Assembly: GCA_951230915.1 (NCBI GenBank)
Contig: OX579635.1
Location: forward strand, 22,258,001 to 22,322,000
DNA: 64,000 nt
Reading direction: 5' to 3'
Source of the DNA: Antitrichia curtipendula
Taxonomy: Eukaryota; Streptophyta; Bryopsida; Hypnales; Leucodontaceae
This document shows positions 4,811 through 64,000 of the stretch, in pieces. A model generated the notes under the pieces. The model searched no databases. It was not told where the DNA came from and saw only the letters and a program-made list of their open reading frames with translations. Both the position numbers and the translations under genes were made by a program. Position 1 is the first letter of the stretch; every line of letters starts with the position of its first letter.

Positions 4811-7800
4811 ATGGCGGTCATGCTGGTTACCAGCGCTGGTGAGCTTGTCATCGACCTCTTCACCGATCAATGTCCTCTGGCGACCAAAAATTTCCTCAAG
4901 CTTTGCAAGTACGTTGTATTCTCCGCCACCCCAGCCTGTCGCTCGTGTCCAGCCTGCATCCCGCTAATCTGCACTGTGAATGGAAAGAAATGAGGTTTTA
5001 GGGCGTGGAAATTGGAGCTTGCTTTGAATTGTGTTTGGTGATACGCGCAGGATCAAGTATTACAATAACTGCTTATTCCACTCGGTCCAGAAAGACTTCA
5101 TCGTGCAGACGGGCGACCCGACAGCCACAGGAAAGGGCGGTGACTCCGTTTACAAGTGAGTTTGGGACGCAAGTCGATCGCAAGTTGGGAATAATTTGAT
5201 CGTGTTGAGCAGTCGCAATTACTGTAGGCTGCCTGGGAGGTCCCAGCTCATGCTTGCTATAAAGAACTGGTGGCAGTTTTGAGAGATAATAGTCTTACTA
5301 TAAAATTCTCGAATTAGGGTTTCAGATGTCTGGAGGATGATTCCCATCTTCGTAAGAAATTCGATTCGAGTACTTTGTGGTCGGTGCCAGTGTGTGATCA
5401 ATTTTTTTCCGCTACAGGGTTTTGGGTACCGAGTAATGCTTTGATATTTGAAAATGTTGTGTGAATGCTTGATATATGCATTGCAGGTTATTGTATGGGG
5501 ACCAGGCCCGTTTTTTTGATGATGAGATTCACCCTACTCTTAAGCACGACAAAGTGGGTATTGTGGCCATGGCCAGCGCGGGTGAAAATGCAAACGCATC
5601 GCAGGTGCATGCCTCTCCTACTTCCCTTTCTTTAGTCCTCTGTTAAACAGAGTTTATTTCTGTTTTCTGTATTCATCTGGCCACTTCATCTAGTTAATAG
5701 CCGTTTCCTAGTTCCCTAACACCAAACACACCATGTACTGTGGACCATGGTAATTAGGGAGGCCCCAGTAATTTGTATTCTTCAAATTTAGTGAGACACC
5801 TTGGAAGCTGCAACGTAGCTAACAACCTCCTGGGACATAATTGTCATGGGCCATTTATTTTTTCACTCACTGCATTTAAACACCCTGAGCTAATGATGTG
5901 TTTGGTGTAATCGTTTGCAAGTGCCACGAAACGTTCACTTTAGTTGCCCAAATTGTGACGAGGAACAGTGCTCGAACTCATTTGATGTTTCTTGGATTTT
6001 GGTTGCAGTTCTATATAACAACAAGGGCTGAACTGGACTACCTTGATGAAAAGCATACGGTCTGTATGTCTTTCCTCTTGCCTTTCGTTTTTTCGAAGTT
6101 CTCACGTTTACAGGACTTCGTCACGCATTTCTTTATTTAGTATGATGTGATTCCTGTTGGTTAACGTCCGCTTCAGGTATTCGGAGAGGTTGGAGAGGGC
6201 TTGGAGGCATTAACACGAATTAATGAGGCATTTGTGGACGACAATAATAGGCCATATAAGAACATCCGGTAAGGTTTAGGGATATGGGGATTACCAGCTG
6301 TTTCTCTATTTTCGTGAGCAGATATTCTGTGTTTCACTGATTTGACTCGTTAAAGGTCCGTTGTAACAACTAAGAGACGGTAGATACCTGCAGTTTAGAA
6401 AGTGGATGAGACGTTTGGCTACTGATCGAGTGGCTAGGGGACAGGATAAAGCACACCATCATATTGGAGGACCCATTCGATGATCCGGCTGGCCTTTCAG
6501 ATCTGATCCCTGACCAATCTCCTGAGCTGAAGCCTCCTGCTGAGGTAAGGAATTATCGTTTTGTATTCTTCCCTCAATCTAGTGCCTGTTTTTTTAATCT
6601 TCTTAGGGGGAAATGGGTAGTGCTTCTGTCCTTGGGGTTCGTTTGGGTAGTATCCTTTTCACTACCTGCCTTGCGACAAGGAGCTCCGTATTCGTACACA
6701 ATCAAGACGGCATACCAGCTGGAAGCCAGAAGGCTGTAGTGGCTGGCGTGCGACTCTGTGTAACGAAGATCAATTGGTAGAAGCTGTCTTCCTAGCCTGA
6801 TGGGCTGTGAGCCATGAAGGAGTGGGTCAAGATCCTCTACACAGTTGTCGTTTAGGACGTTGGGCTTGTGTGTTCTGTTTTGTTACGAGTTCCCAATCTT
6901 CGCGCGCATAATCAAGTTAATCGCGCAGCAGTTAGCGTGGAGTCTGGTTTGCTTTTATTGCGCATATTTATTACGAGTAGGGCGAGTTGTGATTGGATGC
7001 TTTCTTTTTGTCTTGCAAATTTCCATTTGAACTTCTGAAATCCAGGTTAAGGGCATGCATCTTTTTACCGAATTTGTCGTTATTGACATGCAGAAATGAT
7101 TTTAGGATTCAGAAGTGAGCGTGGAATTTTTGTCTAGTTTTATAAGGTTGTTATACTGCTATTAATAGATTAGGGACTCTTTTCTTCCATGTGTTGCCTA
7201 ACATTGTAATTGTAACTCGTAGGGGGAGGAGGTGCGATTGGAAGATGATTGGGTTCCAATGGATGAGACCATGGATCCAGAGGAGATTGAAAAATCAATT
7301 CGCAAGAAAGAAGCTCAGTCACGAGCCGTCGTTTTAGAGATGGTATGTAATTTGCCCTAAACTTTGGCATATGAACGGGGAGTCCATTCATTCAACTTGC
7401 AAGCTCAGTAACGGTTGTAGATTCTATTTTTTCAAATTTGATTTTATGATAAGTTTTCAAGTTTATGTTTTACATCTTTTCTTTTTATGCAAACTTCAAG
7501 AAAGTTGACGAAGTCATGTACTATAATACATCTAGATTGTGTCCAAGACCCTCAAGCATTAAGTGGTTAATGTACTGAATCCACCGTAACAAAGTTTTAT
7601 TAGAAAATACACTTTTTGAAGTTTGGGCTTCAGGATCAGCCAGTAAGGTAGAGAACTTTACAGTAGTTGGAGAGTTAATAATATATACCTTAGTGCTTAG
7701 AAATCCTCTCAATAGTGGACAAGACTCACAAAAATTGGATTTCTAATAATAGTAATTAGCAGCCGATAGTGTAGGTTCTTAATCTCATTGTTGATTATGT

Positions 7801-10351
7801 AGATACTCTGTTCGTCAGTTTTGAAAATTCATTATGACTGATTTTATTTCATTCTTTGTCTTTTCTTGCGTGAGAGTGCCGCAAAAGAGATGCTGGTGAA
7901 CAAGCCCTTATTGGGTGGTTGCACTTTTGTAGATTGGGGATCTCCCAGAAGCAGATATGAAGCCTCCAGAGAACGTGTTGTTCGTTTGCAAGCTTAACCC
8001 CGTTACTGAGGTAAGTTCGCAGAAAAACTTATGTCGTCAGTATTGGCCAGTCTACTTTCCTCATGTTCTTATTGGGCTAGTTTTCAGGATTACAGTAACT
8101 AATCTCTTGTATGGTGGTGGGGATGGGTACAGGAAGGTGATCTTGAGCTTATCTTTGGGCGATTTGGCAAAGTCAAGTCGTAAGTCTTTTGTACTTTGAT
8201 TTTCTTTCCTTTTTTCCTTGTATTTAAAGAAAATAAATTAAATTTTCGTTCAAGGTTTTGTTGGAAAATGTGAATGTGATTTTTCTTAATGTGGATAATG
8301 TGCCTTGCGTTGATGTTTTTGCTGTCACTATCCGCAGGGCAGACATCATACGAGACTTCAAAACTGGGGATAGCTTGTGTTATGCCTTCATTGGTAAGTC
8401 TTGCTGCAGTTCTTGTCCATGACAACTTTCGCCAATTTTATACCTAAGTAGCTGAATTTGGGATGAACATTTTGTGGATTGCGTGTGTTGACTTTCATTC
8501 TAAGGTTTCCTTGATGGTTACAGAATTTGAGACCGAGGATGCATGTGAGGCTGCTTACTTTAAGGTCAGTTATTGGCGCATCTTTGTGTTTATGGATGGA
8601 TAAGTTTTGTCTGTCATGAATTGTGCTTGAGTTTCCTTTACATTATCTCACTGTTTTTATTTATTTATTTATTTTCTTCTGATTTTCTGATTTGTCACTT
8701 CAGATGGATAATGTGTTGATCGATGATCGACGAATACATGTGGATTTTAGCCAAAGTGTCTCACACTTATGGAATCGATACCGAAAGCAAGGCAAGACTG
8801 GTGGAGATAGTCAATGTGAGTTTTCTACACAATGATATGTGCTTTGCCATCTTAATAAGATAGCCAAGAAGTTGATGACTGCATTATCTTCGTAGGTTTA
8901 GTTACAATTTATCAAAGTACCAGATAGAAGTCGGATTTATACGAGTAGAGGAATAACCTACTAGACTAGAGTTCTCCTTTAGTTGTGGCAAAGTGGGAGT
9001 GCTTACCCTGTCAGTAAAATAACAGCATCAATCTTAAATTCTGCAACGTATTGATGACCCTGATTGAATCGGCTAGTGCTGGAAGCCTTTTGGGTCGTTT
9101 TTGAAAAAGATAGAAAATTGTACGAGTTAAAGATATCTCAAATGTGTGTTCGCATTCGCCCTCATTGCAGTTTTATTTATGTTGGAACTGAAGGCTTCAG
9201 CTGACATGACTTCTTTTTTGATATTATGGGCTGCTGACGTCCCTTTATGCTGCAGCTGGAAAGGGTTGTTTCAAGTGTGGAGAGGTGGGCCACTTTGCAA
9301 AGGAGTGCCCCAACGATGGAGCGGAACAAAAGGAAGCCCCTACTGAGAAACCTAAGTACACAATCAAGGACACCGGTGGGCAACGAGGACATGCAAACAA
9401 AAGGTAGGAGCTCTACCTAGTTTGATGTCACTGTTCATCCTTAAGTACCCAAGCTCAAAATAGAACTTCCACCTCGGAGGCTAATAGTCGATTTCTAGTA
9501 ACATTCAAAACATATTGCACTTATTAAAACATGTAAGCAATGATTGTTGTTCTATATTTGTACTCATTGTTACCTTCCTTGAAGCTTCCTAAGTGATTAC
9601 ATGTCAACTTTGACCATTTCAGCAATATGGGGTTAAATGATTATTTCAAAAGCAAAAATGGATAAGTTGTCACTAACTTTGTCCCTCTCCTTACAGGTAT
9701 GAGATGGTCTTTGCCGATGATGAGAATCCACAAGACCAAAGAGTATCGAACAAATCTCGGCAAGGGAGACGACAAGATAAGGACAGAGATTCACATCATG
9801 GGTCTGAATATCACAGCCGCATGGAAAGAGAGTTCGAGAGGCCTCGGTCTGATTGGGACGCAAGAAGAAGAGCTGAAAGAGAGTCTGACAGATCTCGTGT
9901 GGACAGGGACGTGCGAAAGAGAACGGATAGGGATAGGGATCGAACGGATAGAGATAGGGATCGAACGGATAGAGATAGGGATCGAACGGATAGGGATAGG
10001 GATCGAATGGATAGAGATTTTGATTACAAGTCTCGGGAGGACAGGGACACAGAGAGAAGAAATGAGAGAGAATATGAAAAGCCTCGGGGACAGAGGGACA
10101 CAGACAGAAGAGTTGAGAGGGAATATGAAAAACCCCGTGTGGATAGAGACGCACGTAAAAGAACAGATAGAGAGTTCGAGAGGGATATGAGCAGAAGGAA
10201 GGAGTCACATAGAGGACGTAGTGGCAGTCCTGAGGATTTACACAAGGCTACAGGTAGGAATCATGAAAGGGATGAGTACGGGAGGGGGGCAAGAAGTGAT
10301 GGTAGTAGATATCATAACGATGATATGCGCAGTAAGAAAAGGAGGTCTTAG
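4811..10351 (+). CDS. CYP59: CYP59-type cyclophilin with RRM and zinc knuckle
   Basis: Multidomain nuclear peptidyl-prolyl cis-trans isomerase. In plants CYP59 is known to bind RNA and the RNA polymerase II C-terminal domain and to link transcription with splicing. Exons: 4811-4908, 5051-5155, 5487-5604, 6009-6059, 6177-6268, 6445-6544, 7223-7342, 7933-8010, 8133-8179, 8338-8393, 8524-8564, 8704-8815, 9256-9403, 9697-10351. They join in frame to give 606 residues. Residues 1-165 are the divergent cyclophilin domain ([32 protein letters not shown]). The RRM spans about 241-320 ([20 protein letters not shown]). A CCHC knuckle ([14 protein letters not shown]) lies at 344-357. The tail from about 395 is RD/RE/RS-rich. 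The family's Arabidopsis member is about 100 residues shorter, largely because of the longer tail here. The start ATG opens the conserved cyclophilin strand. A near-identical partial copy lies at the right end of the window. Confidence 0.96.
9920..10024 (+). repeat. 21-bp tandem repeat encoding RTDRDRD
   Basis: Five head-to-tail 21-bp units within the last exon of CYP59 (starts 9920, 9941, 9962, 9983, 10004), each reading RTDRDRD. The last unit is diverged to RMDRDFD. Units 2 and 3 are identical at the DNA level. The repeat stays in frame and lengthens the Arg-Asp-rich tail, around residues 464-498. Confidence 0.9.
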
Positions 10352-20849: not shown

Positions 20850-21620
20850 AATTGGATTTCAAGCAAATACTTACGGTCTCAATTCTTATCATGATTCTTT
20901 GAAACTTTTTTGAAGATAGAAAATCTGATTAGCTTGATGGGAATTTTTTTACTTTTTTCAATTGGTGCTTGGTAACAAAAATATCCAAATAAGCTTAAAA
21001 CAAGGGAGATTGGGCAACAACAAAGAATTCAAAAATTTGAATTACATTTTTTTCTCACTGGCTATATTTTTGTCTATATAGGAAGTTTTGATTCATTTCA
21101 TTTGGATAAGTATTCAATGGAAGTTATGGACAATCTTGTTTTGGAGGCAATCTATGCATATTTTTGAAAAAATATCTCATAGGATTGATTTCTAAATGCA
21201 ATTCTTACAAAAAAAAAAATTTAAAAGCTCCACATGGTTTGATTTTCAAGCTAGAAAAAAATCTCACCATTGGAATTAGTGTGTTTCAATTTCATTTTAG
21301 AGATATTAATAATTTAGATTTCCTTCTATCTCATACCTATTTCTACTTAACAATATTTTTAAGAGTGAAAATTAAGCTTTTTTGAAATTTTGTTTTTATC
21401 CTAGAATCTCAACTCAATTCCCCACCATTGTACAAGAAAACTTGTTTTCTTCACTTTAAACTTACATATCTCGCAATCTACGCAGCCGAAGTTTTCTAAA
21501 ATTATTTCACAAATTCTCATACTAGTTAGGTGTAAGATCCTATGGTTCAATGTGCAAAAACAAAAACAATTTTCAAATTTTTTTACTCTTTGCAATAGAA
21601 ATGTTAGTTTGAGGTGTTTT
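20850..21620 (+). repeat. Dispersed repeat A, copy 3
   Basis: Aligns along most of its length with 1900-2720: 'CATGATTCTTTGAAACTTTTTT', 'TATAGGAAGTTTTGATTCA', 'AGGATTGATTTCTAAA', 'CATTGGAATTAGTGTGTTTC', 'TTGTTTTCTTCACTTTAAA' and 'GATCCTATGGTTCAATGTG'. Same orientation as copies 1 and 2. Non-coding and diverged. Confidence 0.6.
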
Positions 21621-24599: not shown

Positions 24600-25200
24600 A
24601 AAAAACACTCAAAACTGCCATTTATGCTAGATTTGCCTAGGGAAAAAAAAAAAAAAAAACTTTCTAAAAATCTAACCATAGGATCTTGTACTCAACTTGC
24701 TTTAGATCATGTTGTAAAAATTTCATGAAGTTTGACCGTACAAATTAAAAGATATTAGCATTCAAAGTTTGCAAGAATTTTTTTTAAAAATTTGGCTTGC
24801 AATTTCAGATGACTTTGACCACCATTTGTGGAATTTTTTTGCACTGCACACTTTGAATTAAAAAAAATTTATGTTGAAGAATTAAGTTGAAAGTGTAGGA
24901 ATTTTTTTTAAAAACAACAAAACTTGATTAATTTTTCATTCTGTAGAAAATTGTTAATACCTCTAAGATGGAATTGAAACATAATAATCCCAACGGTGAG
25001 ATTATTCTAGCAAGCATACTTAACCCTATCAAACAGTTTGTTTTTTTTAAATGTGAAAATTGCATTTAAAAATGAATTCTATAAGTTATTTTTTGAAGAA
25101 GATGCTTAGATTGTCCAAAAAACAAGATTGTCATAACTTTTTCATCATTAGTCCAAATAGAATGAATCAAAGCTTCACATGTAGGGCCAACAATATTATC
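24600..25200 (-). repeat. Dispersed repeat A, copy 4 (inverted)
   Basis: Reverse complement of the family: 'GAATGAATCAAAGCTTCAC', 'AAACAAGATTGTC', 'GATGGAATTGAAACATAAT' and 'CTAACCATAGGATCTTGTAC' appear in the order expected of an inverted copy. It lies about 3.8 kb from copy 3, so the two form a long, imperfect inverted pair. Confidence 0.6.
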
Positions 25201-25775: not shown

Positions 25776-28700
25776 TTATGATGCCATGAGCTTTGAATCC
25801 TTCAGCCCTAAATTATGAGCCCCCTCAACTAATTTGCCATCACTACCAGTCTCTTCAGCTCCAGTTAGCAAATAATTAAGCTTTTCTTCAACTTTCACAA
25901 TCTCAGGACTTGTGTGACCGGTTCGAGTTACACACAACCATTCCCTAGACGAGGAAACATCATCGCTACAACTCTTTGGAATATGCCAGGACCCGCTTAC
26001 AGATTCCTGCATGGACAATAACCAAGCATCAGGGATTTGGTCTCACATTTATAGAAGCAGTAAGTGTTTAGAACTACTTCTGGAATCTGTTGGCTACCTA
26101 GACCAGTCAATAAAGCAAAGGAACTAATAGAAAACATCCACCCAAATGTCTGTAGAAAATATGTGTCCAGAGAAGTCAGAAACACTACACATATAGCAGC
26201 TAAACATTCGACACAAATGAACCTCGTCCTCATTGAGCGATTTCCGATTATAACGAAAAACCATGTACCTGGATTAATATAGAATAAGGAGGCGGCATGT
26301 GGAAAACAGGACCCTCCTTGCTCAGCGAAAATCGAACCTGATATCACCAAACTCACGCACGCAACTGTTACCATGTGTTGCTATACTAATCACTCTGGAC
26401 ATCATAGAAATTTTGGTTATAACTTTCTGTACCCTAAACAAACAGAAGGTTACCCTCAAAAGAAGAATTTAATCACCTGATGTCGCTCTTTCCACTTGGG
26501 AAAGAAGTCGCTCCCAAGAAGCTGGAATAAGTGGTCTCGCATCTCGTCATTGGTCACTAGAATGCACTTATATCGTACTGCAGCGTATAGCCAATACCTG
26601 TCAAGAGGAATAGTATCTCTTAAATTAGATACAACCTGTGTCACGTTCTCATCCGCACAATTTTGCATTCATTTGTTCTTGCTAAACCCTAATGACATGC
26701 AAAAAAATTCTCAATGAAACCTTGCAGCAGGACGGAACCTTTTCGGTGTGTTGCATTGTAACAGGCTCCGCTCTAGTAAGATATACATATAGATAGAAAT
26801 GACCTTTCAAAATTAAAACAATTCTCAGGTACTACAATTTGCACGAGATATCAACTATCAGTATCAGTTACTTGAGCTACATTGACTGTAACAACAACCG
26901 CATCAGCAGAATACAGAGGCTTCCTTGTATGTACCAGTCATCGTTCGATCCAGTTGGTGTGGTGTAGAGTGCATGCGCATCTTGCCATCTGTTAAGCGTT
27001 TTAATGGCAAAAGGAGAATTGGCCGGTCCTCCTCTGGTTCGTCTATGATGCAACAAAACAAGTGGTTCTCTTTTTGAACCCACCTTTTCCTTAATCCCTT
27101 TCACTACGGAATTCAGCTGCAATTATGCAGAACAGAGGGAATAGACTGAGTCAGTGACTTGAACTTTGGTCGCATGCTACACCATCACAAAACAGCATAC
27201 CAAACAACTGCTATGATACTGACTGTTCATGCAAAAAAACCAAATACCTGGTGGAAGTTGAAGCCACCTTCACCGAAATTCTGGTTAAACAACCCAACAT
27301 TGGCTCCATCTACAATAACATCAAACGGTCCATGTCGATCAAGCCATCCCTGCAGCAATATTCACAAACGTACGTGATCAGTGACTGTTGTAAAACACAG
27401 AATCAGTTTTGTACTCCTAAATGAGAAGCTCTCTTCACAATCAAAACTCTTTCAAAATCAGGTCCTTTGCGGAAATACCTGAAACTTTTTAAACTCGTTG
27501 TTTTTGCTCTCTCGCTGGCAAGCTAATTCTGACAAGGAATTCGCAAACAGCTCTGTCTCTTTAGGATCTATGTCAATTGTGACAAGCTGCTCCCCGCATT
27601 CTTGACAAACACCACTTGCATCGAGTACACTGGATTTGACTTCCCAGGAGCCACGGCCAAGCCAGCCAAGTCCATGCCACCCACCACCGCGGCTGTCATA
27701 AGCTGCTTTCACTGTCTCCTGACTAGGCAAAGTATCCCAATTTGAGCTGCCAACATTCCCACCAGTGCTGCTTTCAAACCACAATTTAATCACATCGGCA
27801 ATCGAGGGCGACAACCCCCGAACTGTCGTCCGTATACGGAGCAGGATAGAATAGACTTTGTCTTCAAGTCCCGCACCAGCGCTCAACGTTAGAAGCGCTT
27901 CCAATTCGCTTTCTTCAGGCCGAACGCCAGCTGACTGCATGTGCTCATCAACCTCAAACGCCTTTTCGACGTTCTTCAGTTTGCAGTACGTGTGAAGTGC
28001 TGGACTATATGACCTCAGCCTGCAAAATACAAATTTTCAAAAAGCAAAAGTATAATCAAAACCTGCTTGAATAATGCTACGCTTAGGAAGCACACCAATA
28101 CCACATTACACTGCCAGGACAGCCTTAACAAACAAAGAAAGGACCTAAACTTATTACGGTCTTGGTGAACAGTACACAGCAAGACAAACCACAAATATAC
28201 TGTGACAGTGACCATCAAAGGGATGAACTTTTGAGTGACAGACTACAATCCTTTACAAGTTTATGCCATTCAAAATAGAAAATTAATCAAACGTGAAACA
28301 CGAGTGTAGAGTCGGTGTAAGTCACTATTTTGAGGCCAGATATTCACCTGGGAGAGAGCTTCGCCGCGGCCATCTGCTTAACCATATCGAAGGCCAGATC
28401 TCCATCTTCCTTAGCCACTGCAAGCCGTGCTACTGCAGTAAAAGTGGCTTCATTTGGAGGCACTCCTTGTAGTTTCATTGCTTCATAGACCGCAAAACCC
28501 CTCTGCAGACACACTTCCTTTTGATCATTTGTCAGCACAACCTCTTGCTCCGCCTTCGATTCAATTGGAGCGGCGCCTTCGAGTTCGTCTTTGGCACTAC
28601 CCGTCTGCTTGCCCTGCACATTGCCTAATGCAAGAAACTCATTCAATCCTCACATACATTACTGTTGAATGGACCTAAACCCTAAAACCCTAAAACCCTA

Positions 28701-29088
28701 CCAATAGGATTCTTCGCCCCAAAATTGCCTTCCAAAGAGATCCATATGGAAAGTCTTCAGCAGTGGTGGTGCAATGAAGGGACTCACTCTTGTGCTTCTC
28801 GCTGTTTCCGCTCTTGCCCCGCTTGAGGGAGCCCGTGGCGCCCGAGGAGCACAAGTATAGGAGCACATTGTAACTGTACTGATTGAACGAGGTCTTTCCT
28901 TCAGTCACCACCCTGTCATAAATGTCTATGGCGCCCATGGCATCGGCAAACTTCGAACACATGTCAATGGACCTTCGAAGCTCCGACTCAGCTGGATCCC
29001 GTTTCTTCTTCGGCTTGCGTTCGTCGCCATCCTGTTGGTCGGTGGGCGCAGGCCGCTTCGCATTCTTCCCGTTCTTCCCATTCTGCAT
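25776..29088 (-). CDS. PRORP: Protein-only RNase P (PRORP)
   Basis: Single-protein endonuclease that removes 5' leaders from pre-tRNA. Exons in transcript order: 28788-29088, 28348-28624, 27479-28019, 27248-27349, 26935-27116, 26477-26597, 26269-26337, 25776-26006; in frame, 607 residues. A basic N-terminus (KRPAPTDQQDGDERKPKKKR) looks like a bipartite nuclear signal. Pentatricopeptide repeats follow (about 50-260), then the central zinc module with CQEC at 331-334, then the NYN metallonuclease: DGANVG (Asp387), SNDDW (Asp466, Asp467) and TNDEMRDH (Asp485). These four aspartates correspond to the catalytic set of Arabidopsis PRORP1, so activity is expected. ATG 29088 is the first in-frame start. 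The frame is open upstream to a stop near 29168 but has no earlier ATG, so an upstream exon or an organelle-targeted isoform is not excluded. The nuclear form is the likelier call. Confidence 0.95.
28673..28700. repeat. Telomere-like repeats in PRORP intron 1
   Basis: Four near-perfect CCCTAAA or CCCTAAAA units in a row, inside the first intron of PRORP. Plant-type telobox sequences near gene starts are known regulatory elements of translation and RNA-processing genes. Here they could be regulatory or a relic of telomerase-mediated repair. Confidence 0.7.
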
Positions 29089-29295
29089 CTTTAGATCACG
29101 TGGAGGGTCGACGACGACTGCGCCTTGCAAAGACACTTCACGATATGTATTTGCTGAATCAGTCTAGTAAGCAAGCCAATGACCGTGCCTTTAAGACTTT
29201 AGCATTTGATATCAAGAGTTTAGTGACTGCAGAGACTAAAATGACGAATTGTTATAGATGGCTTATAAACCTTCTCTCAATACTTCACCGCGCTG

Positions 29296-30356: not shown

Positions 30357-33300
30357 AGGTAGCCAACCCACTTTTCGATTAGGCACCTATTTTTGCACAT
30401 TAGGGTGCTACAATTCCGTGAAGCCGATGACGTTTTTATGAAAAGTGGTGACACATTATAGGTAGAATTAGGAGTATTCTTAGTTTAGTTGACATGTAAG
30501 GATGAACACATTTCTTAATAGTGTTTTTTGGAATGGATGTGGATAACATTTCAAAAATACTAATTGTGCATCAATAGCTTTGGCCATTTCAAGCAGCTAA
30601 TTATATAAATTTTAGTGATTAATGTATATGATAGTGTGGTTGGTAAGGGTGCTGTCATCTATTGAGTTGCATGGAGGATAGAATAGAGATCCAAATTAAA
30701 TGCTTTTATTGACATTACAATGCACTTCACATTCACAACTCATAGTTGCATTAACAAGAGCTCCTATACATAACTCGTAGCTAGCTTTGAAGGCATTGAA
30801 ACTTGATAGTGAACTTTCAATCTAACCACCATAGCACCTTTGGGTGATAGTGTGGTGTTTGAGATTGATGACCTAGAATGCAACAGTGAGAGTACCAAAG
30901 AGGAACATGTAGTTCATGAAGGAAGGAATGGTGCTAGTTCTAGTGAACTTGATTCTCCTATGGATACTAAAGTAGACAATTATGAAGCATTGGAGATTCA
31001 ACATTCACAGAACAAAAGTCATAGGAGTTACAAGGGTGGTCGACAAGTTGGGGGAACAATAAGTAGTAGCGGTCTAAGTTTCACTAGGCGAGAAAAAGGT
31101 TGAGTAGGGACCACCGTATGAGCAAGAGACAACTAGTCAAAAATATAATAACAAAGGAAGGTAGGGGGCTACTCTACAATAATCCCACTGTATAAGACAA
31201 CATGGTCAAGGGAATACCACCAAGGCCTATTGAAATGAGCGTAGTAACAAAGGAAGTCAGCAAGCAACAATTCCAACCACAACAAGCAAGGCAACAGAAG
31301 ACCAACACTAGCAAGGTGAAACGGAATGCCCATTGGAGTGATGACCAAATGAAAGCAGCCATAGCAAAGTATGAGGATGGTACAAGTATGAGGCAAGCAA
31401 CTTCTAACCATAACATTCCATGTTCAACTTTCAGAGAGTGGTGTTATGGTAAGCATAAAAGCAAAAAAAGGGGAACTAAAGATGTTCTAATTATAGAAGA
31501 AGAAAGTCAAATTGTGAATTTTCTTCTAGCTATGTGTGACATGGGTCTAGATCTGAATCCTACAATTTTGAAATTGAAAATGTATGAAATCACAAAAAAT
31601 CGGTGCACACCATTCAAAAATGGGATTCTAAGTAATGGCTAGTTCAAGAGGTTTAAAAACCATCACCCAAAGTTGACATTAAGGTTAGCTAAAGCCCTTG
31701 CAACTTCTAGAGCAAAGGAACTATGTAAAGAGAATGTCCAAAGATTTTTCAAAATTTGAATGAAATTTATACATTAAATAGGTATCCTCCACAAAGAGTA
31801 TGGAATTGTGATGAGGTTGATGTGCAAGCTAGGAGAAACAGTGGTATGCTTATTCTAGCTCAGAGAGGTGCTTGTCAAATACATCTCATTGTTCCAGATC
31901 AATGCAAATGGCTCTCAACTCTGATTTGCATCAATGCAATAGGGTTAGCATTGCCATCCTTCTATATTTTTAAAGGGAAGCAAGTGTGTCAAGACTACTT
32001 ACAACATTGTAAATGAAGTACAACCATGCAGTGCAACCAAAGGCTTTTATGACAACTTTTTTATTTTTAGCTTGGATTAGGCACTTCATTAAGAGTGTGG
32101 AAAAACTTGGTGGAATTTCTTCTACTTACAAACATTTGTTGATTTTGGATAGATACACTAGCCATGTTTCAATTGAAGTGGCAAAAGTAGCACATGATGT
32201 TGGACTTGACATTGTCACCCTACCATCTCATACTTCTCACAAACTACAGCCTCTAGATGTATGTGTTTTTGGCCCTTTTAAGACCTATTTCAAACAATCT
32301 CAAGATTACTAGATTCCTAGACACTTAAATTAGCCAATCCAAAAACAAACTCTTGCAAAATGGGTGTCTGTGAGCTTAAGGCAAGCTTTGAGAGGGAACA
32401 TAATTACCAAATGATTCAACTCTACTAGAATCTTTTCTTTAGGTAGAACAACAATGGACAAGCACATGGATCCTAGTGACACATATAAAGACCAAGCCCA
32501 CAAAGGTATATAAGAGCAAAACAATGGTGAAGACACTACACATAATTCAATAGAATATGAAGGAAATGGACAGGTGGACATACAATTAGATGGTGCAATC
32601 ATACCTACCTTAGAAGATGATGACATTGCAATTGACTTGCAGTAAGCTCCTAATTCGAATACAGATCACTATTTCGTTGAAAATGACCACTCTGATACGG
32701 AATTGGCACATGAAGTGGCACAAAAGGTTGGCAAATTACAACCTACTTCTAGTACTCTGGAATCCATAACACGCTTTCTAGCTCGGTCTACCATCACAAA
32801 CATGTCCAAAGACATGAAACACACTATAGACCCTACAAGGGATTTATTAAAATCACAATTGTTAACTTTGGGGACATACATCAATAGTATGCAAGAAATA
32901 CAATAGTGGAGTCTAGAATGGGCGAGGGAGAAAGAAAAAGCGCAACATGAACGACAAGAGGCAAAGCAATGGAGATTGGCCAAAGAAGAGGAGAAGTGAC
33001 TACAACAAGAAACTCACCAATGGAAGCAAGCAAAAGAGCGTGCCTGAAAGGCAAAAGAGTGGGAGGTAGAAACAAAGGAGTGCCAAGCAAAGGCAAAAGA
33101 ATGTGAGACATCATCGCGAGTAAGGTTTCTGCAATGAGTGGAAGCGGTGCGGTTGCAAGCAACAGAGAGGTCAAAGCAACAAACAAGTGGGTGCAACAAC
33201 GCTTCAACGTGGAGAAGGCTGAGGCAACTGCGTGGAAAGAACGGCCTTGGCTGCAATCAGAGGTGCTCAAACTTCGGGGTCAAGGAAGTTGTCGGAGAGG

Positions 33301-45400: not shown

Positions 45401-48400
45401 ACGAATCATCATTTAGTCAAATTATGGAGCAGATAAGTTAGCTCAGGAACTGATCTTTTTCTGAACTTGAGATCTGCTTTGTGCTCAGATTACTGGTGTG
45501 GCACCTCTTTTGTTCGACGTTGTGTTTGTATCTGGAACACAGAAACATCATGTCGGAGCTCTTGAACGTGTTAAGAAGCTTTCAGGTATGTTACTCAACC
45601 CTCACCTAGAAATTAAGCATTGGACTTCATTTCTAGTCAACTGCCTTTAGATGATGGTAACTTTTGCATAGTCGCAGCGTTCATGCACATATGCGACTTC
45701 GTTTCATAGAAATATTATAGTAAGAAAGTAGGGTAATCTTTAGGTAAGGTGCACCCTAACCCTGAACACATTCTGCAGTTGTAATTTGGTATATTTTGCA
45801 TATTTTTCATGCCAATGTTTGTCTTTGCATCAGGTGCTGAGCTCATCAGGAAAATAACGGAACGTGAAGAGATGTTTGAAAGGCGTTTTCAATCAACCTT
45901 TAAACTGCAAGACAAGGTACGTCGAAGTTTGATTTATCTTGTGGCTGGCATTGAATTGGGAAGTAGGATGTAATTAGTCATCGATTGTGAAAATTGGGTC
46001 CAGAAAAGTTACATAATGTTCTTCCAGATGAGTTGTTTGTAACGGTTTCTGAAGTGTTTTCAGTAGGCCTTCATCTCTTCTTTATACACAATGTTCTACA
46101 ATGCACTTAAAACAAAGATCATTGTGGTAACCTTTTTTCTTTCCAGATACTCGGTTCCGATCAGATATACCTATGAGTGGTTCACATCCTCCGTTTTGGG
46201 TTGATGTTTATGTAGAGGAAATCTCAGTGACTTCCAACAATTTCAACTGTGATATGGATATGGTGATGGAACAGGTGGAGAGTGAAAGGGAGGTGGAAGT
46301 GGGGCGGGTTGCACTCAGTAATCTTTTGGGCAGCATAGGATACTTCTATGGACAGTCTCTGATAGCAGTTCCACCAGAGTATCAAGTGAGTATTCCAGTT
46401 CCTTTTTTGTTCATCTAACGATTTTCAGTGCCAGGATCAGCTGAGTGTCTTGTTCACTCATGCTTTCACAATGTTGTTTTGATGCCTGTCAACAACTGTT
46501 AATAGAAACAGGCGATCAGTAATGCTCTTTGACGATGACATTATTTGAATGTATAATACTCTGACTGAAGGCAATTTGGTCGATGTTGTAGAATTTAGAA
46601 GAAGAAGCTGAAGACGTTTGGGAATATTGGCCTGCGGCACTGTATACTGCTGTCCCTAGCCGCTCGTTCTTCCCACGCGGTTTTCTATGGGATGAGGGCT
46701 TTCATCAGCTCGTGGTCAGGTGTGATAAACATGAAATATGTGTCTCGATCTTTGAATAAGAGTTAATGTGTCGCGTTAGGGATTCATATCTTTGCCTTAC
46801 GAAGAAATTAGGAAATACAGTGTTTCTTAATTGTGGAAATCTTATTGGAATATACAGCTTATGACGTCTAATTTTGCAGTCAATGGGACCGGAAGATGAG
46901 CAAAGAGATTATAGCTCACTGGTTTGATCTCCTCAACATCGATGGTTGGATTCCTCGTGAACAAATTCTTGGAGAGGAAGCTCGCAGGTATACATTCAAT
47001 GGGAATGTAGCAAATCACGACCGAAAATTTTGCACTGCCACGGTTTGCTAGTCTGCAGTCGCTTTGAGAGAGTTGCTCCAGTTTATAGAAAGAGCATTGT
47101 CAAACCTTTCATGTACAGCCTATGCCTGTGTCATGGGTTTTGATGTTTTGATTGTTATGAATTCATGGTCGAGAACCCACTCCTCAGAGTTATTCTGAAA
47201 ATCCTAGCAGTGTTAAATCCTGTCAATTGTAAGACCATTTAAGGTAGATATCTAATGTAAACCCTGACAATTATAAACCAGCTAGGTTTTCTAGAATACC
47301 TCTGGAAGGTGGGCTCTCTACTAGTGAAAGAGATCATATTTTCATTTAAGTTATATTGAGTTAATTGAATGGGATTTGTGTAACCATCTTGGATTGTGAT
47401 GCAGCAAAGTTCCCGACCAATTTGTGAAACAACACACCAGTAATGCAAATCCTCCGGCGCTTTTCATAGCTTTACATAGTAATAAAATCACTTCCTGCCT
47501 TTCATTTTTAAATTGTGAATTCTGCTTTTTAAATATCTGAGTGATTTCTGCTGTTGGGACCCAGTCATATGCTTTCTCGTTTCTTGTAGGGCGAAATGGC
47601 TTACATATAGACTTTTGATTCTTTATTTTAAGCTTGCTTGAGGATATCTACTTGTAGGGATAATGACGTCCTTGGTCTTGGTATGTGCAGAACTTGCAAC
47701 AGCGTACGAAGAAGAGATCGCTTTAGGAGTTCCAAACGAAGAGGATAAAGTATTCTTTGAGAGATTGTATCCTAGACTTGAAGCTTGGTTTCAGTGGTTC
47801 AACACCTCTCAAACTGGTTTGTCTCTAATACGACTTCAATTCAAACTTTCATGATGTCGAGGCTAGGCTTTATATGTGAGCCAATGAAGAATTTGAATTT
47901 CCTTGGCTGCTTGCACATGCGTACCCTGATTTCTCATATCTTTTACATCGTCCTGTCTGGTACCTTCTGTGAGTGCTTGTGAGTTTCTTCTATGGTTTAT
48001 AGGATACTAATAGTGCATAAAGTGGAGACTGAGCAGGGAAGGTGCCAAGCAGCTACTACTGGCATGGACGAAACGCAGAAACGAAGCGGGAATTAAATCC
48101 TACTGTGAGTGAACTGTATTTGCACATCTTTTTTAAGCTAAGCTAGTGCAGTTAATTTGTGAATCCATGTTGGTATTGAAGAGGAATTGTATACCCTGAT
48201 GGTGAGTCATGAGTGCATTGAGTTAGATATAGCGGAAATATAAGGTAGCCGTTCATTTGAGAATCTTCTTAATGTCTCTCGACTCTTATAGGAATCTTTG
48301 TTGTGGCAGACCTTAATGTCGGGTTTAGACGATTACCCAAGAGCATCACACCCTACTGATGATGAGCGGCACCTGGATCTGCGGTGCTGGATGGCATTGG

Positions 48401-57226: not shown

Positions 57227-60200
57227 TTACCCCTGGACCGTGTAATCTACAGTAATTTGACGGCCATTCAAGAGGGTCCTGCAGAGAAAAACCTGATATG
57301 TCAGAGTAATGACAAGAACATAACACTATCTTCCTACAATTCCATCAGAGGCCCGCCCTAAGTTGTACAGACACAGCAAAAAAATACAGAATCCAGCTCT
57401 TAAAGTAATATTATTGACCTGTGAAGACTCCGTTTTGCTGAAACAGCTTCTGCGACGCTGGAGAAGGTTATGTGGAAAGCATTTCCTTTATCATTCTTCT
57501 TAAATTCCTGCACAATCATACCACGGAGCTCAAGCTCAAGAATCAGAACTGCAGTCCGATAAATCACGACCTTCTGATATGCTTTGAAAACGAAAAAACG
57601 TCATAAGCAGATCGTCTATCTCAGTCTGAAGCGAGGGTTTTACAGACTTCAAGATCACATAAGTACACCATCACAACCAAAACATTATACCCCAGGATCA
57701 TACCAGTATCTTTCCTTGTTTCTCGAATGCTTCCACCACCGCTGCCATTGACGTGTTCTCCGGGAAACCGCTCACAGATAACACTCTACAAAACACACCT
57801 ATGTCAATAACACATAGTTCACAAACAATAAAATCCCTTCCATTCTAGACAACGAAGCTAATTGCCTCTCTGGTGAATGTAATTGGGTTGCTTGGTTTAT
57901 ATTCTCTCGGGTCACAACCTTCTTATATTCCTGTATCTGTCCTCACTATCAGGAAATACATGCATTGTTAGTACACCTAGCCTGCGCCTGGTAAACAACA
58001 AAGACCTCAGATCTATAAGAAGGAGAACTTTTGTGTTGCCTCGGTAAATGCACAAGTGAATAATACCTGCTCTTTGTGACTGGTCCACCAAGCTGGATAA
58101 GATGGTTCCCCGCAGTCTCCATGCCATTTCCTACACTTGAAACAGTTACAGTCTTTGAGCTATGCCTCCGATCCAACCCGTTTTCTCGGCTTCGTTTATT
58201 TCCGAACTGACCCCCAGACGAATTTTTGGACCATAGAGCAGAGTCGTTCCTAGAATAGAGAGCCGGAGTTCCATTGTGATGGACACTACCTCGATTGTCT
58301 CCGTTTGTCCTCCACGTACCATCAACCTGAGATCGAATGTCTGAATTCTTCATACTAGCATTTTCCCTGTTGGCAGCGGTATGGTGAGGAATCACGATGG
58401 GCAATGATCCCTGTCTCTTGGGAGTTCCTAAAGCCACCACACCACCAGGACTAACATTGACAGGTACTGCATGGCCAATGACTCCAAGTGGTGAAGGAAA
58501 TCCAGTGGGGATACTCCCTACTGGTGGCTCAGCCCAGAGAGGACTCATCACCTGACCTCGACCCTGGCCATGAGCCCTTCCTCGAGCAGCTGGCATGCTT
58601 GAAACCTCATGATAAATAGCAGACGAGGGTGCCCACGCACTCGGTTGTCTTCCAGATACTGTTCGATCTCGATTACTGACCTGATTTAACAGACCGCCCC
58701 CACTGATCCGACCTGCAGCGAAATCTGTACTTGGTGGAGCTCGGTTCCCAAAACCTTCCAAGGGCCGGGGATAATTAACCTGTGGCCTTAAGTCAGGTTT
58801 CTGAACTTGCAAATGCATCATCCCATGTGAACCTTGTAATTGGCCTCCTATAAGCTCAAGACCCATCATAGGCCGCATAGTAGAACCACTCATAGAAGCC
58901 CGAATTGTCCCAAAATTAGCCATATGGACCTGGGCTTGAGCGTGAGCATGGGCATGTGCCTGCTGTACTTGAGCGTGAGCTTGAGCTTGAGCTTGAGCTC
59001 GGGCTTGAACTTGTGCCTGGCCCTGGGCCTGGGCATGTGCTTGGACCTGTTGAACTTGCTCTTGGGTCATTTGCATAAGTTGTTGCTGTCGCAACATATG
59101 TTCTTGGACTACCATAGTATCTCGCATATGATTTTGCATCTGTCACACCACATTCCATTTTCTCAAAATACGAACACTCGGAATATATTGACTGTGATGA
59201 TTCTAAATATTGAAGTGCCATGCAGATCAAAAGAAAAAAAACATTCAATAACTCACAAGTTCACAGGCTCCTGATATAGGACATCTAAAAATGCAGAGAA
59301 AAATCCACATCCACATTTGTAATTAAAACAAAATCAATATTTGCAGACATATGGACAAAACACGTCAAAATATGACGATTTCCTGTTAAGAAACATCATC
59401 AATCCTTGTATGGCCTAAGGAAATTATAAACAAGAGACTGTGACCAAGTTTCTACAAAGAAGGCTTCTTACATTAACCTCATTCTGATTCAACCTTCCAG
59501 ATGCCACCATGCCTCCAACGGATCGTGGAATTCCTCGGCCAAAACAGCGCAATGACATATGCCCCCCATACTCCATTGACACTGCAGGTTTTCCAGGACC
59601 CATAATTCCTGGTCCAGAATTCCCTCTCTGAAAAGACGCCGCGTTGGCACCTTTAGAACCTGCAAACAACCAAATACAAGAATATGAACATCTTGCACGT
59701 TCAGAGAGAATTTAGGCTAAAGACAATAACCAATGAAGCAGCAAGTTGTCATACAAAGTTTTCATATCAGCTTAAACTAAGAGGAGAATTTGAACTATAG
59801 CATAGATGTGCAATTCTTGTATGGAAGAAACAGAATATCAAGAAGTCAGAGATCCATGTGCTTGTCGGATCACTGAACTTATTTATCGGTGACTAGAGAG
59901 CGGCAGTTGTAATTGAGCACCCTGCGAATTTCGAAGTTGACTGCAGAATATTTACTCAATAGATGAAATTTTAAAGATCAGAATACGCGATGTTTACCTC
60001 TAGAATAATTACTCCGCTGACTTCCATGCATCTTGTCACTGAACAGAAGGCAGGAAAGATATCAGTTGAAAATGACGAGCATATAATCCACATAAATCGT
60101 TCAGCACACACACCACATTGCACATGCACGTCATGAACTAAATACATTCAAGATCTACAAACAATGAAAAATGAAAGAAAAGAACGCTACTCCGAGCAGA

Positions 60201-62509
60201 AAGGATCTGCGAAGAGTACACTGAGGCTTAAAAGAGTGAAAACTTGCTACTTCTGTCAGGTTACAATTAAAAACCAGGAAGAACAAAATTGTAATCTTGT
60301 TCTCGAACCACTCTGATTCAAAAGTACTCCATAAATTATACCTTGAACGTCCTCGAAATTGCCTGCTGTGCGCAAGAGCAGTCTCCTCTGCATCTCTTCT
60401 TCCCCTGTTATCCAAATGCCTCTCCGCAGCATATCGATCTTTCCTACGTTTCCGCTCACGCCGATCGTTCTCACCTTCGTCATCATCTCCACCATTGGCC
60501 ACTGCTTCAGGGTCAGAACCCTCGGGCTGTCCCCCGCATTTCCAACTTCCACATATGAGTGCTTAAATTGATCTTTACTATCTATCCCTCTTGACCAAGG
60601 CTGAGACTTCCTGCAAACATCACGTTTACAAAACCCAGCACCTCTTGCCCGAAAAATGAGGGACTATTTAGACCAAAAACCTATTAAGCATGTGAAACAT
60701 GTTACTCGACGACAAGAGATAGTTCTAAAGACAGGCTAGAAGAGCCACCCCTAGGGGAAAAAAGAATTGGCTCCACAGACGTATTTTTTAATATGGTTTA
60801 GGGTTCACTTCCCACTTACTAAAACCGCAGGTGACAAAATAAAAAATGCCACAAATTGCCTCCATGTGCTTCGGTCCAGACTCTTACCCTCCAGAACCAA
60901 TTCAAATTTAAAAAGAGACAACCCTAAGCCCTTAAAAAATTGACACACACAACAGGGAACACTTTGGAAGTTCACCAACTTTGGGCTCTCTGAATATATC
61001 GGATCCCCGCCAACGCTTTTGAACATGTCTTCAGCCTCTGAAAGGAGTTTGATCAAACCCAGCCATCTCCTTCGCAGATTCCCAATAACTACTGTGGCTT
61101 TGCTGCCGAATTGGTCTCATTCCCGAATGATGGTAGATACGCAGAACTTAATCCCATGCGGCAACTGACAGCTGACTCAAAGTAATAGTTGCTGGATATA
61201 TCCCGCTAGACAACACGCACGGAACCAGTTTCAGGCATGAATCGGAATGAACCACCGCTCGCCCCTTACCTCAGAGACAACTCACCCAAACTACTCGCCC
61301 GAGGCCCACGGGACATCTATAGAAGATTGAATGGACAATACGATTTTCAACTTCAAACGCCGTCCCAGGATACAAACGTCCTCCAGGATACAAACGTCGA
61401 TACAGCAATATGAAGAATGGGATCTTCAAAATTAACGAAGGCCTTCTAATGGAGAGACGATAAGAGGAGATTAAACCATTCGACAGAGCCAAGTCATGGC
61501 GCAAGGAAAACTACAACTTCCGAAGTTCGTAATCCTCACAAGAACAGCGCTCAAAGCAATGATTGAACAGAGGACTGCTAATTTAGTCTGGAAATGGTCT
61601 AAAGATGTGAAAGTTCTAGAGAGACACCGTAGAGAGGACACACAGCTTTTCGCGACACTCCACTCGAGAGAACACTACGACATGAGCACATATGATTCGG
61701 AGAAGTAAATGAGAAAGTTGTGAAATGCCCCCTTCACGGCAAAACACAAATCGCCAGGGACTAAAACCACATGGTGTCATATTTCCGCCCTTCTTCCGTC
61801 ACTCCAAAATAGCAAGAAATCGCGCTGATCTTTGCATTGCTCATGCTGTGAACTAAAATAACGATTCTAAAAACTGAGAGAAAAAAACTTCAAGAGAATT
61901 TCGACTGAATCAGCAATTTGTGCGTCAACGAAAGTTTGTGAGACAGTGTATCGAAAAGAAAGATGACTGGAGTAGGAAAAAAAATGAGACAGCCGAGAGA
62001 AGCTACGTCCAGTAACCGCTATCATCCAATGCGAGAGGAGTGTAAAAAACGGCGAGATGAGTAGAAACCCAAGAGGGTGAGAAACCCTAGCCAAGAGAAA
62101 ACGAAGACAAAGCGGGACTGGGAGGGAGAGGGGGGTATGGGAGCGTGGAGACACGGAGGAGAGAGAAGATGATCACCATGGCAGCGTCGTCAAGCTCGCC
62201 ATCCTCGAGGTCAGGCTTAGGACGCAACGATTTATGCTTAGGGGGATCATCTACGACGACGAAGAAAACGGGGACGACAGGAGGTTGTTTTACATCAACC
62301 ACTCCATCCGCTTTCGCTTCAGCGTTGAAATGCGCAACACTATCTTTGGACGGTTTGGAGGGAAGAGGAGGAGGGGGGGCTTGGGCTTCGTCGTCTGCCG
62401 CAGAGGCTTCCTCGTCGCCGGATTCGAAACCATAGTCGGAGCCCTCAAAGTCCACAAGCTCCTCGTCCTTGACATCATAGTCGCCATCTACCGCGGGGCC
62501 AGTATCCAT
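57227..62509 (-). CDS. Acidic, Q/A-rich protein with C-terminal RRM
   Basis: Family not recognised. Proposed exons in transcript order: 62177-62509, 60342-60600, 59998-60038, 59472-59659, 58006-59139, 57854-57936, 57704-57785, 57419-57573, 57227-57278, about 775 residues. The protein has an acidic N-terminus (MDTGPAVDGDYDVKDEELVD), an Arg/Lys/Asp region (RRERKRRKDRYAAERH), a Gln/Ala/His-rich stretch, a Gly/Pro-rich middle and a C-terminal RRM-like fold: VLSVSGFPENTS, MAAVVEAFEKQGKI, KVVIYRT, GNAFHITF, LLNGRQITVDY. This points to an RNA-binding nuclear factor. Two problems: the second exon needs one extra base at the C run 60531-60535 to stay in frame, and the intron after the Q/A-rich exon has a better-looking donor (58066) that breaks the frame. 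The first intron and the first donor are the least certain parts. A CYP59 fragment is fused in frame upstream. Confidence 0.72.
58921..59050 (-). repeat. Gln-Ala/His-Ala coding microsatellite
   Basis: A run of degenerate 6-bp units (GCTCAA, GCCCAG, GCTCAC) coding alternating Gln-Ala and His-Ala dipeptides in the long exon of the RRM gene. The six-base period keeps all frames open and explains the open frames in other frames and on the opposite strand. Confidence 0.85.
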
Positions 62510-62521
62510 GGTCTCATCCGC

Positions 62522-64000
62522 GGCTCGCGACTCAGCTTCTTTATTGCGTAGCGCTTTCTCCGTCTCCTCTGGATCCATGGTCTCATCCATTGGGACCCAA
62601 TCATCTTCCAGCCGCACCTCCTCCTCCTACAAGATATATTTACAATGTTAAGCAGCACACGGAAATAAAGAGTCCCTAGTCTACTCACAGCAGTATCAGA
62701 AAAACACTTCTGCATGTCAATAACTACAAATTCGGTAAAAAGATGCATTCCCTTAACCTAGATTTCAGAAGTTCAAATGGAAATTTGCAAGACCAAAAAA
62801 AAGCATCTAATCACAACTCGCCCTAGTCGTAATAAATATGGGCAATAAAAGCAAACCAGACTCCACGCTAACTGCTGCACGATTAACTTGATTATGCGCG
62901 CGAAGATTGGGAACTCGTAACAAAACAGAACACACAAGCCCTACGTCCTAAACGACAACTGTGTAGAGGATCTTGACCCATTCCTTCATGGCTCACAGCC
63001 CATCAGGCTAGGAAGACAGCTTCTACCAATTGATCTTCGTTACACAGAGTCGCACACCAGCCACTACAGCCTTCCGGCTTCCAGCTGGTATGCCGTCTTG
63101 ATTGTGTACGAGTACGGACCTCACTGGACACGAACACCAACGACAGAAGCACTACCCATTTTCCCCTAAGAAGATTAAAAAAGCAGGCATTAGATTGAGG
63201 GAAGTATACAAAACGATAATTCCTTACCTCAGCAGGAGGCTTCAGCTCAGGAGATTGGTCAGGGATCAGATCTGAAAGGCCAGCCGGATCATCGAATGGG
63301 TCCTCCAATATGATGGTGTGCTTTATCCTGTCCCCAAGCCACTCGATCAGTAGCCAAACGTCTCATCCACTTTCTAAACTGCAGGTATCTACCGTCTCTT
63401 AGTTGTTACAACGGACCTTTAACGAGTCAAATCAGTGAAATACAGAATATCTGCTCACGAAAATAGAGAAACAGCTGGTAATCCCCATATCCCTAAACCT
63501 TACCGGATGTTCTTATATGGCCTATTATTGTCGTCCACAAATGCCTCATTAATTCGTGTTAATGCCTCCAAGCCCTTTCCAACCTCTCCGAATACCTGAG
63601 GCGGATCACATGCTACGTTAACCAACAGGAATCACACCATACTAAATGAAGGCAAGCGGAACGAAATCCTATAAACGTGACAACTTCGAAAAAACAAAAG
63701 GGAAGAGGAAAGACTTACAGACCGTATGCTTTTCATCAAGGTCTTCCAGTTCAGCCCTTGTTGTTATATAGAACTGCAAGCCAAAAAAAATTTAAAACAT
63801 CAAGCGCAGACCGATTACAGTTCGAGCACAGTTCTTCATCACAATTTGGGCAACTAAAGTAAATGTTTCGTGGCACTTGCAAATGAATACACCAAACACA
63901 TCATTAGCTCAGGGTATTCAAATGCAGTGAGTGAAAAAACAAATGGCCCACGACAATTATGTCCCAGGAGGTTGTTAGCTACTTTGCAGCTTCCAAGGCG
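62522..64000 (-). CDS. Partial CYP59 duplicate (exons 4-7), fused in frame to the RRM gene
   Basis: Inverted second copy of the gene at 4811-10351. Exons: 63723-63773 (exon 4), 63504-63595 (exon 5), 63228-63327 (exon 6) and 62522-62626 (first 105 bases of exon 7). The window ends inside the intron before exon 4, so exons 1-3 should lie just outside. Exon sizes and phases equal those of gene 1 and no stop is present. Exon 6 is identical to gene 1 and intron 5 differs at 2 of 176 bases. Homology ends after ...EAESRA; reading continues ADET and then the ATG of the RRM gene's first exon, all in one frame. Changes include LDYLD to LEDLD in exon 4 and GEG to GKG in exon 5. RRM, zinc knuckle and RD tail of CYP59 are absent. 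It is either an expressed chimera or a truncated pseudogene. Confidence 0.88.

What the first reader, a model, noticed from the sequence alone, without database searches (positions are those of the whole stretch)
62177..64000. In-frame gene fusion: CYP59 cyclophilin exons joined to an acidic/Q-rich RRM gene
Seen: the minus-strand CYP59 copy keeps splice sites, phases and reading frame through exons 4-6. Its exon 7 runs without a stop, in the same frame, through ADET into the MDTGPAVDG start of the RRM gene. Known: CYP59 itself couples a PPIase to an RRM and an RS/RD-like tail. Inference: the rearrangement may have made a new PPIase-acidic-Q/A-rich-RRM protein of roughly 1000 residues, or at least given the RRM gene a CYP59 promoter and 5' exons. 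I know of no described family with this order.
Basis: partly seen in the sequence, partly recalled or inferred. Interest (0 to 1): 0.9.

Follow-up and report, generated by a model that had tools for sequence, protein, structure and literature searches.

The report
Moss cyclophilin and RNA-binding gene fusion
In this stretch of what looks like moss DNA, a copied piece of a cyclophilin gene has been joined, in frame and with a visible repair scar, to the start of an unrelated RNA-binding gene; it looks like a young gene fusion of a common kind whose product is not yet shown.

Summary
An inverted partial copy of the CYP59 gene (intact parent at 4811-10351, +) lies at 62521-64000 (-). Its exons 4-7 read in one frame into an RRM gene: 800 residues over 11 exons. 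New here: (1) the join carries a 16-bp exact copy of CYP59 exon 7 (62519-62504), as in templated end joining; (2) 12 of 16 distinct relatives of the RRM protein start MA[DE], but the window has a CYP59 codon where that Met should be, so the native start was probably lost; (3) a relative shows an unfused 5' end; (4) 0 of 254 proteins fetched match both halves. Against a new PPIase protein: only the last third of the PPIase domain is in the window; the copy changed at conserved sites, including an active-site Tyr to Asp (also seen in 2 of 113 relatives); its exons are no better kept than its introns; a competing out-of-frame donor follows exon 4. If the RRM gene is expressed, its transcripts very likely carry CYP59-derived leader or coding sequence. 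A full fusion protein is unproven; exons 1-3 lie beyond the window and could not be reached.

The parts
4811..10351 (+). Parent CYP59 gene, 14 exons, 606 aa, intact: PPIase domain, RRM, CCHC knuckle, RD/RE-rich tail
   Evidence: tblastn; assembled with one terminal stop; RRM, knuckle and tail named from the sequence, not from a domain scan of the parent
62521..64000 (-). Inverted partial copy of CYP59 (part of intron 3 to exon 7); similarity runs to the window edge, so the copy probably continues beyond 64000
   Evidence: blastn 63998-62521 vs 5799-7328; base-by-base alignment
63723..63773 (-). CYP59-derived exon 4; weak donor ACG|GTCTGT shared with the parent; a GTAAGT donor 4 nt downstream in the copy (GTATGT in the parent); DY to ED at the active-site edge
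63504..63595 (-). CYP59-derived exon 5
63228..63327 (-). CYP59-derived exon 6
62522..62626 (-). CYP59-derived part of exon 7, in frame with the RRM gene
62573..62588 (-). Source copy of the 16-bp repeat GGATGAGACCATGGAT in exon 7 (parent copy at 7261-7276 +)
62504..62519 (-). Second copy of the 16-bp repeat at the join, 69 bp from the first: templated filler (inferred); contains the in-frame ATG at 62509
62177..62521 (-). First coding exon of the RRM gene (KDEELVDFEGSDYGF ... LEDGELDDAA); native start codon probably replaced at its 5' end
57227..60526 (-). Remaining 7 exons of the RRM gene (60526-60342, 60038-59998, 59659-59472, 59139-58067, 57785-57704, 57507-57419, 57278-57227); Q/A-rich stretch, C-terminal RRM
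   Evidence: spliced relative P0241 94% identical over 360 aa

Best explanation
A DNA-level, lineage-specific gene fusion, probably in a moss. Part of CYP59 was copied in inverted orientation, introns included. Its exon 7 was joined to the RRM gene at or within a few bases of that gene's start codon. The repair copied a 16-bp filler from exon 7, as in polymerase-theta-type end joining, either during insertion of a fragment or during a deletion between neighbouring genes. The native initiator Met was probably lost and its place taken by a CYP59 codon; the filler brought an in-frame ATG at 62509. Shown: the copy, its partial spread, the repeat at the join, the unbroken frame, and RRM relatives without this 5' end. 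Inferred: the loss of the native start codon, the repair route, and that any RRM-gene transcript now begins in CYP59-derived DNA. Most likely product: the old RRM protein with CYP59-derived 5' exon sequence, read either as leader (start at 62509) or as a short acidic N-terminal extension (starts at 62590/62578). A complete PPIase-RRM fusion is possible only if exons 1-3 lie beyond 64000.
For: Inverted copy with introns and a full-length parent in the same window. Open spliced frame of 800 aa. 16-bp repeat found three times in the window: parent exon 7, copied exon 7, and the join; longest match 16 against at most 11 in 5000 shuffles. N-termini of RRM relatives: 23 records, 16 distinct after I merged P0005/P0238 and P0242-P0248; 12 of 16 start MA[DE]. 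A relative, P0204, reads MADPADDDEYDVKDEELVDFEG with a 70-residue upstream stretch that has no significant CYP59 match (best E 0.15); upstream stretches of P0236, P0237 and P0240 have none either. Of 254 proteins fetched by three searches, 224 match the CYP59 half, 28 the RRM-gene half (its own RRM domain left out), 0 both, 2 neither at E 1e-3. Templated fillers are a TMEJ hallmark in Arabidopsis (PMC10923293, passages read).
Against: No DNA from a sister species was available, so the native start codon is inferred from proteins only. Four of the 16 distinct N-termini, the Physcomitrium one (MTD) among them, do not start MA[DE], and the spacing of MDTGPAVDGDYDVK also fits a native start at 62509. 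The homology searches were capped: one search scored 7992 candidates and listed 120 of 351 hits, one search listed 120 of 124, one search scored 7992. An exon-7-only leader would have a first ATG (62604) out of frame, opening a 38-codon frame that overlaps the RRM start; this would favour an upstream in-frame start or need leaky scanning. No transcript data.
Confidence: 0.68

Rival explanations
1. Full-length functional fusion: CYP59 promoter and exons 1-3 lie beyond 64000, and one mRNA encodes PPIase-like domain, acidic/Q-rich region and RRM (roughly 900 residues or more).
For: Splice borders, phases and frame kept through exons 4-7; similarity to the parent runs to the window edge; exon 7 has 7.5 synonymous and 6.5 non-synonymous differences, fewer non-synonymous than random (P about 0.009; exons 4+7 together P about 0.027); a start in exon 1 would avoid the out-of-frame ATG problem. 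Asp at the Trp121 position also occurs in 2 of 113 CYP59 relatives (P0012, P0014), so it need not mean decay.
Against: Eight amino-acid changes on the copy against one on the parent, judged by P0007 and P0008; several at conserved sites (E24 in 113 of 113, D10 in 110, Y11 in 109 of 113 relatives). The excess of synonymous changes in exon 7 is about what a constrained parent plus a neutral copy would give (my estimate). In the copy a GTAAGT donor 4 nt after the exon 4 donor matches the consensus at 6 of 9 positions against 5 for the shared donor (parent 5 and 5); using it gives a frameshift and a stop after 33 residues of the window part. Glu at the Trp121 position abolished PPIA activity (PMC2911226, passages read); I saw no test of Asp in those passages.
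Confidence: 0.27
2. Silent flank: the copy is a pseudogene fragment, and the RRM gene is transcribed from a promoter just upstream of its coding region, with only a few CYP59 bases in the 5' UTR.
For: Exons 4+7 differ from the parent about as much as introns do or more (16 of 156 sites, against 73 of 1080 for the six intron stretches listed, or 52 of 445 for intron 3, intron 4 and the end of intron 6 alone); the ATG at 62509 has the strong context gagaccATGg.
Against: CYP59 sequence touches the coding region directly, leaving no native 5' UTR or promoter next to it; the in-frame join needs a 1-in-3 coincidence.
Confidence: 0.25
3. Assembly chimera joining two unrelated loci at 62521.
For: Only one sequence is available; the window has no N but read support cannot be seen.
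Against: The repeat of exon 7 sequence at the join and its place at the start codon look like biological repair, not assembly (inference); the copy differs from the parent at 95 of 1452 sites, so it is not a misplaced parent.
Confidence: 0.05

Closest known systems
CYP59 / PPIL4 multidomain nuclear cyclophilins
   Same: Exons 4-7 of the copy match the intact CYP59 parent at 107 of 116 residues; PPIL4 (7qtt) is the best sequence match among solved structures for a composite query
   Different: The copy lacks CYP59's own RRM, CCHC knuckle and charged tail; exons 1-3 not seen; active-site Tyr changed to Asp
Unnamed plant RRM family (Physcomitrium P0001, Ceratodon P0002, liverworts P0004-P0006, Diphasiastrum P0020)
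   Same: KDEELVDFEGSDYGF and LEDGELDD motifs and C-terminal RRM; 64% identical to P0001
   Different: The MA[DE] start seen in 12 of 16 distinct relatives is replaced by CYP59-derived sequence
Chimeric genes by partial duplication and fusion in plants, e.g. 310 fusion genes in four Oryza species (PMC9199173, start of abstract seen in a search listing)
   Same: Two known genes joined at DNA level in one lineage, one parent kept intact
   Different: Here the join is caught with a copied filler and sits at the start codon; expression not shown

Membership tests
CYP59/PPIL4 | Complete cyclophilin PPIase domain | tested here: inconclusive
   Only profile positions 107-157 of 159 in the window; exons 1-3 beyond the edge
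CYP59/PPIL4 | CYP59's own RRM after the PPIase domain | tested here: not met
   Copy ends in exon 7, before the CYP59 RRM exons
CYP59/PPIL4 | CCHC zinc knuckle and RS/RD-type tail | tested here: not met
   Not seen in the fused frame; seen in the parent sequence
CYP59/PPIL4 | Tyr at the CypA Trp121 position | tested here: not met
   Asp in the copy; Tyr in 109, Asp in 2 and Ser in 2 of 113 relatives, so the feature is usual, not absolute; position by alignment to CWC27, which has Glu there
Unnamed plant RRM family | KDEELVDFEGSDYGF and LEDGELDD blocks | tested here: met
   Alignment A1
Unnamed plant RRM family | C-terminal RRM | tested here: met
   PF00076 22.7 bits against cut-off 20.7
Unnamed plant RRM family | MA[DE] N-terminus | tested here: not met
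   12 of 16 distinct relatives have it, so it is usual, not absolute; the window has GCC of CYP59 where ATG is expected
Chimeric gene | Two identifiable parents and an in-frame join | tested here: met
Chimeric gene | Transcript across the join | not testable with these tools
   No RNA data; 0 of 254 proteins fetched match both halves
Chimeric gene | Selective constraint on the newly acquired part | tested here: inconclusive
   Exon 7 dN 0.082, dS 0.469, but changes polarise 8:1 to the copy and a gene-conversion-like tract covers most of exon 5 and exon 6

The most novel reading that the evidence does not exclude
A newly born moss protein in which a cyclophilin domain with an altered active-site pocket serves as a docking module, placing an uncharacterised RRM protein under CYP59 control and perhaps into the CYP59 (SR protein / RNA polymerase II, recalled) setting, created by one templated repair event that removed the old start codon and supplied a new one.
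Probability: 0.15. Interest if true: 0.6.

Novelty: new member of a known kind. Interest (0 to 1): 0.38.

Why it matters
It shows what looks like a gene fusion soon after birth, with parent, partner and repair scar all readable, so the steps from break repair to a new transcript could be tested directly. As a protein it would be a domain order not seen in the relatives fetched here, but gene fusions are common in plants and function is unproven.

Tried and rejected
Constraint test: exon 7 alone looks constrained (P about 0.009), but a constrained parent plus a neutral copy would give about the same, so I do not count it as evidence for a functional fusion. Conservation of exons 5-6 was rejected as evidence: a gene-conversion-like tract (parent 6196-6566, 2 differences in 371 sites, 0 of 2000 permutations; with a laxer setting 6146-7095, 29 in 919) makes introns and exons equally alike.

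Both put the join within a few codons of the start.

Asp at the Trp121 position was first taken as loss of the pocket; the check showed the same residue in 2 of 113 relatives, so it is now called an alteration.

Searches without result: tRNA and Rfam scans of the window (none); solved structures for the RRM family profile (none); papers on a cyclophilin fusion in moss (1 paper; 8 of 80 listed; 4 papers; titles and starts of abstracts only, none describing this in what was shown).

Full report
What is there. The window looks like moss DNA: the nearest named relatives of both genes are mosses (Physcomitrium, Ceratodon). The parent CYP59 gene is complete on the + strand, 14 exons, 606 residues. 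An inverted copy of its middle (part of intron 3 to exon 7) lies at 62521-64000 on the - strand and reaches the window edge. Because introns are kept, this is a DNA copy, not a retrocopy. Exons 4-7 of the copy read on, without a stop, through a complete RRM gene of eight coding exons: 800 residues from the first complete exon in the window to the final stop.

The partner. The RRM gene belongs to an unnamed plant family: Physcomitrium (64% identity), Ceratodon, liverworts, a lycophyte and, more distantly, a fern. Most members open MA[DE]..., then (K)DEELVDFEGSDYGF, and the full-length ones aligned end in an RRM-like stretch. P0241, from an unnamed sample, is 94% identical over 360 residues of the 3' part and runs across three of the window's introns, so a spliced form of the gene exists in a close relative. 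It does not reach the 5' end.

The join. The bases run ...CGA GCC | GCG GAT | GAG ACC ATG GAT | ACT GGC... in the fused frame. CYP59 similarity ends at GCC G. GGATGAGACCATGGAT (62519-62504) is an exact copy of 62588-62573 in the same exon, 69 bp away; shuffles gave at most 11 matching bases. Such fillers copied from a flank are called a hallmark of polymerase-theta end joining in Arabidopsis (PMC10923293, passages). GCG GAT reads AD, the second and third residues expected after the family's initial Met, so I infer that the native ATG was lost at the join. The alternative, a native start at 62509, changes only a few codons. P0204, a relative alike in exon 1 and in the start of the following intron (65% over 135 residues), has MADPADDDEYDVK with upstream sequence that does not match CYP59. 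Of 254 proteins fetched, 0 match both halves. The fusion is therefore probably derived in the window's lineage.

Is the acquired part working? Exons 4+7 differ from the parent at 16 of 156 sites. Introns differ at 73 of 1080 sites in the six stretches measured (20/210, 14/118, 2/175, 7/99, 12/361, 18/117), so the copied exons are not better kept than the introns. A tract (parent 6196-6566) has 2 differences in 371 sites, which suggests gene conversion. Of nine amino-acid differences in 116, eight are on the copy and one on the parent, judged by P0007 and P0008; position 103 is L or I in these and T in the copy. Changed sites include E24 (113 of 113 relatives), D10 (110) and Y11 (109); the 113 were the CYP59 proteins among the 120 listed. 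Y11 aligns with the CWC27 Glu, the CypA Trp121 position; Glu there was incompatible with activity in the tests of PMC2911226 (passages), in which I saw no test of Asp. Against a simple loss: P0012 and P0014, relatives annotated with PPIase and RRM domains, carry Asp at this place. That paper also reports PPIL4 to have Asn in place of Arg55, and CYP59 has Ser there by my reading, so even the parent's activity is not assured. The copy also has a GTAAGT donor 4 nt past the shared weak donor of exon 4 (6 against 5 consensus matches); using it would end the window's frame after 33 residues. Against these points stands exon 7, with dN 0.082 and dS 0.469. On balance this argues for relaxed constraint, not firmly.

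Mechanism. Either a CYP59 fragment was inserted at the RRM start, or a neighbouring second CYP59 gene lost its 3' half together with the RRM 5' region in one deletion. In both cases an RRM transcript must start in or cross CYP59 DNA, unless it starts right at the join. In-frame ATGs stand at 62590, 62578 and 62509; an out-of-frame one at 62604 precedes them.

Verdict. A real, probably young, in-frame gene fusion with a readable repair scar; ordinary in kind, uncertain in product.

Noticed in passing
window 27461-29163 (-): Gene for a protein-only RNase P (PRORP): PPR_long in three ORFs; the PRORP domain match (34.6 bits) is below its cut-off of 39.1.
   Followed up: no
window 18059-19086 (-): Exons of a serine incorporator (Serinc) gene: one ORF at 49.1 bits (cut-off 24), a second weak one at 17.6.
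   Followed up: no
window 31196-32309 (+): Remains of a pogo/Tigger-like DNA transposon: psq helix-turn-helix and DDE_1 pieces (the type name is recalled).
   Followed up: no
window 46131-46415 (+): ORF matching the C-terminal domain of glycosyl hydrolase family 63.
   Followed up: no
window 6196-6566 (+) and its copy on the - strand: Gene-conversion-like tract: 2 differences in 371 sites between parent and copy, against 93 in the other 1081; 0 of 2000 permutations as strong.
   Followed up: yes
window 1917-2453, 20876-21419, 24948-25196: Three-copy dispersed repeat, 69-76% identical.
   Followed up: no
window 6060 (+) and 63722 (-): CYP59 intron 4 starts with an unusual GTCTGT donor; a GTATGT (parent) or GTAAGT (copy) lies 4 nt downstream.
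   Followed up: partly
P0002 and P0008: In Ceratodon the RRM gene bears a tag (KC19_VG289300) that reads as chromosome V and CYP59 one (M758_9G126200, perhaps another assembly) that reads as chromosome 9, whereas here the two genes are about 50 kb apart (reading of the tags is recalled).
   Followed up: no
window 62522-62626 (-): Copied exon 7 has 56% GC (parent exon 49%), the same as the adjoining RRM exon 1.
   Followed up: no
P0012, P0014: Two CYP59 relatives have Asp where nearly all others have the active-site Tyr.
   Followed up: no
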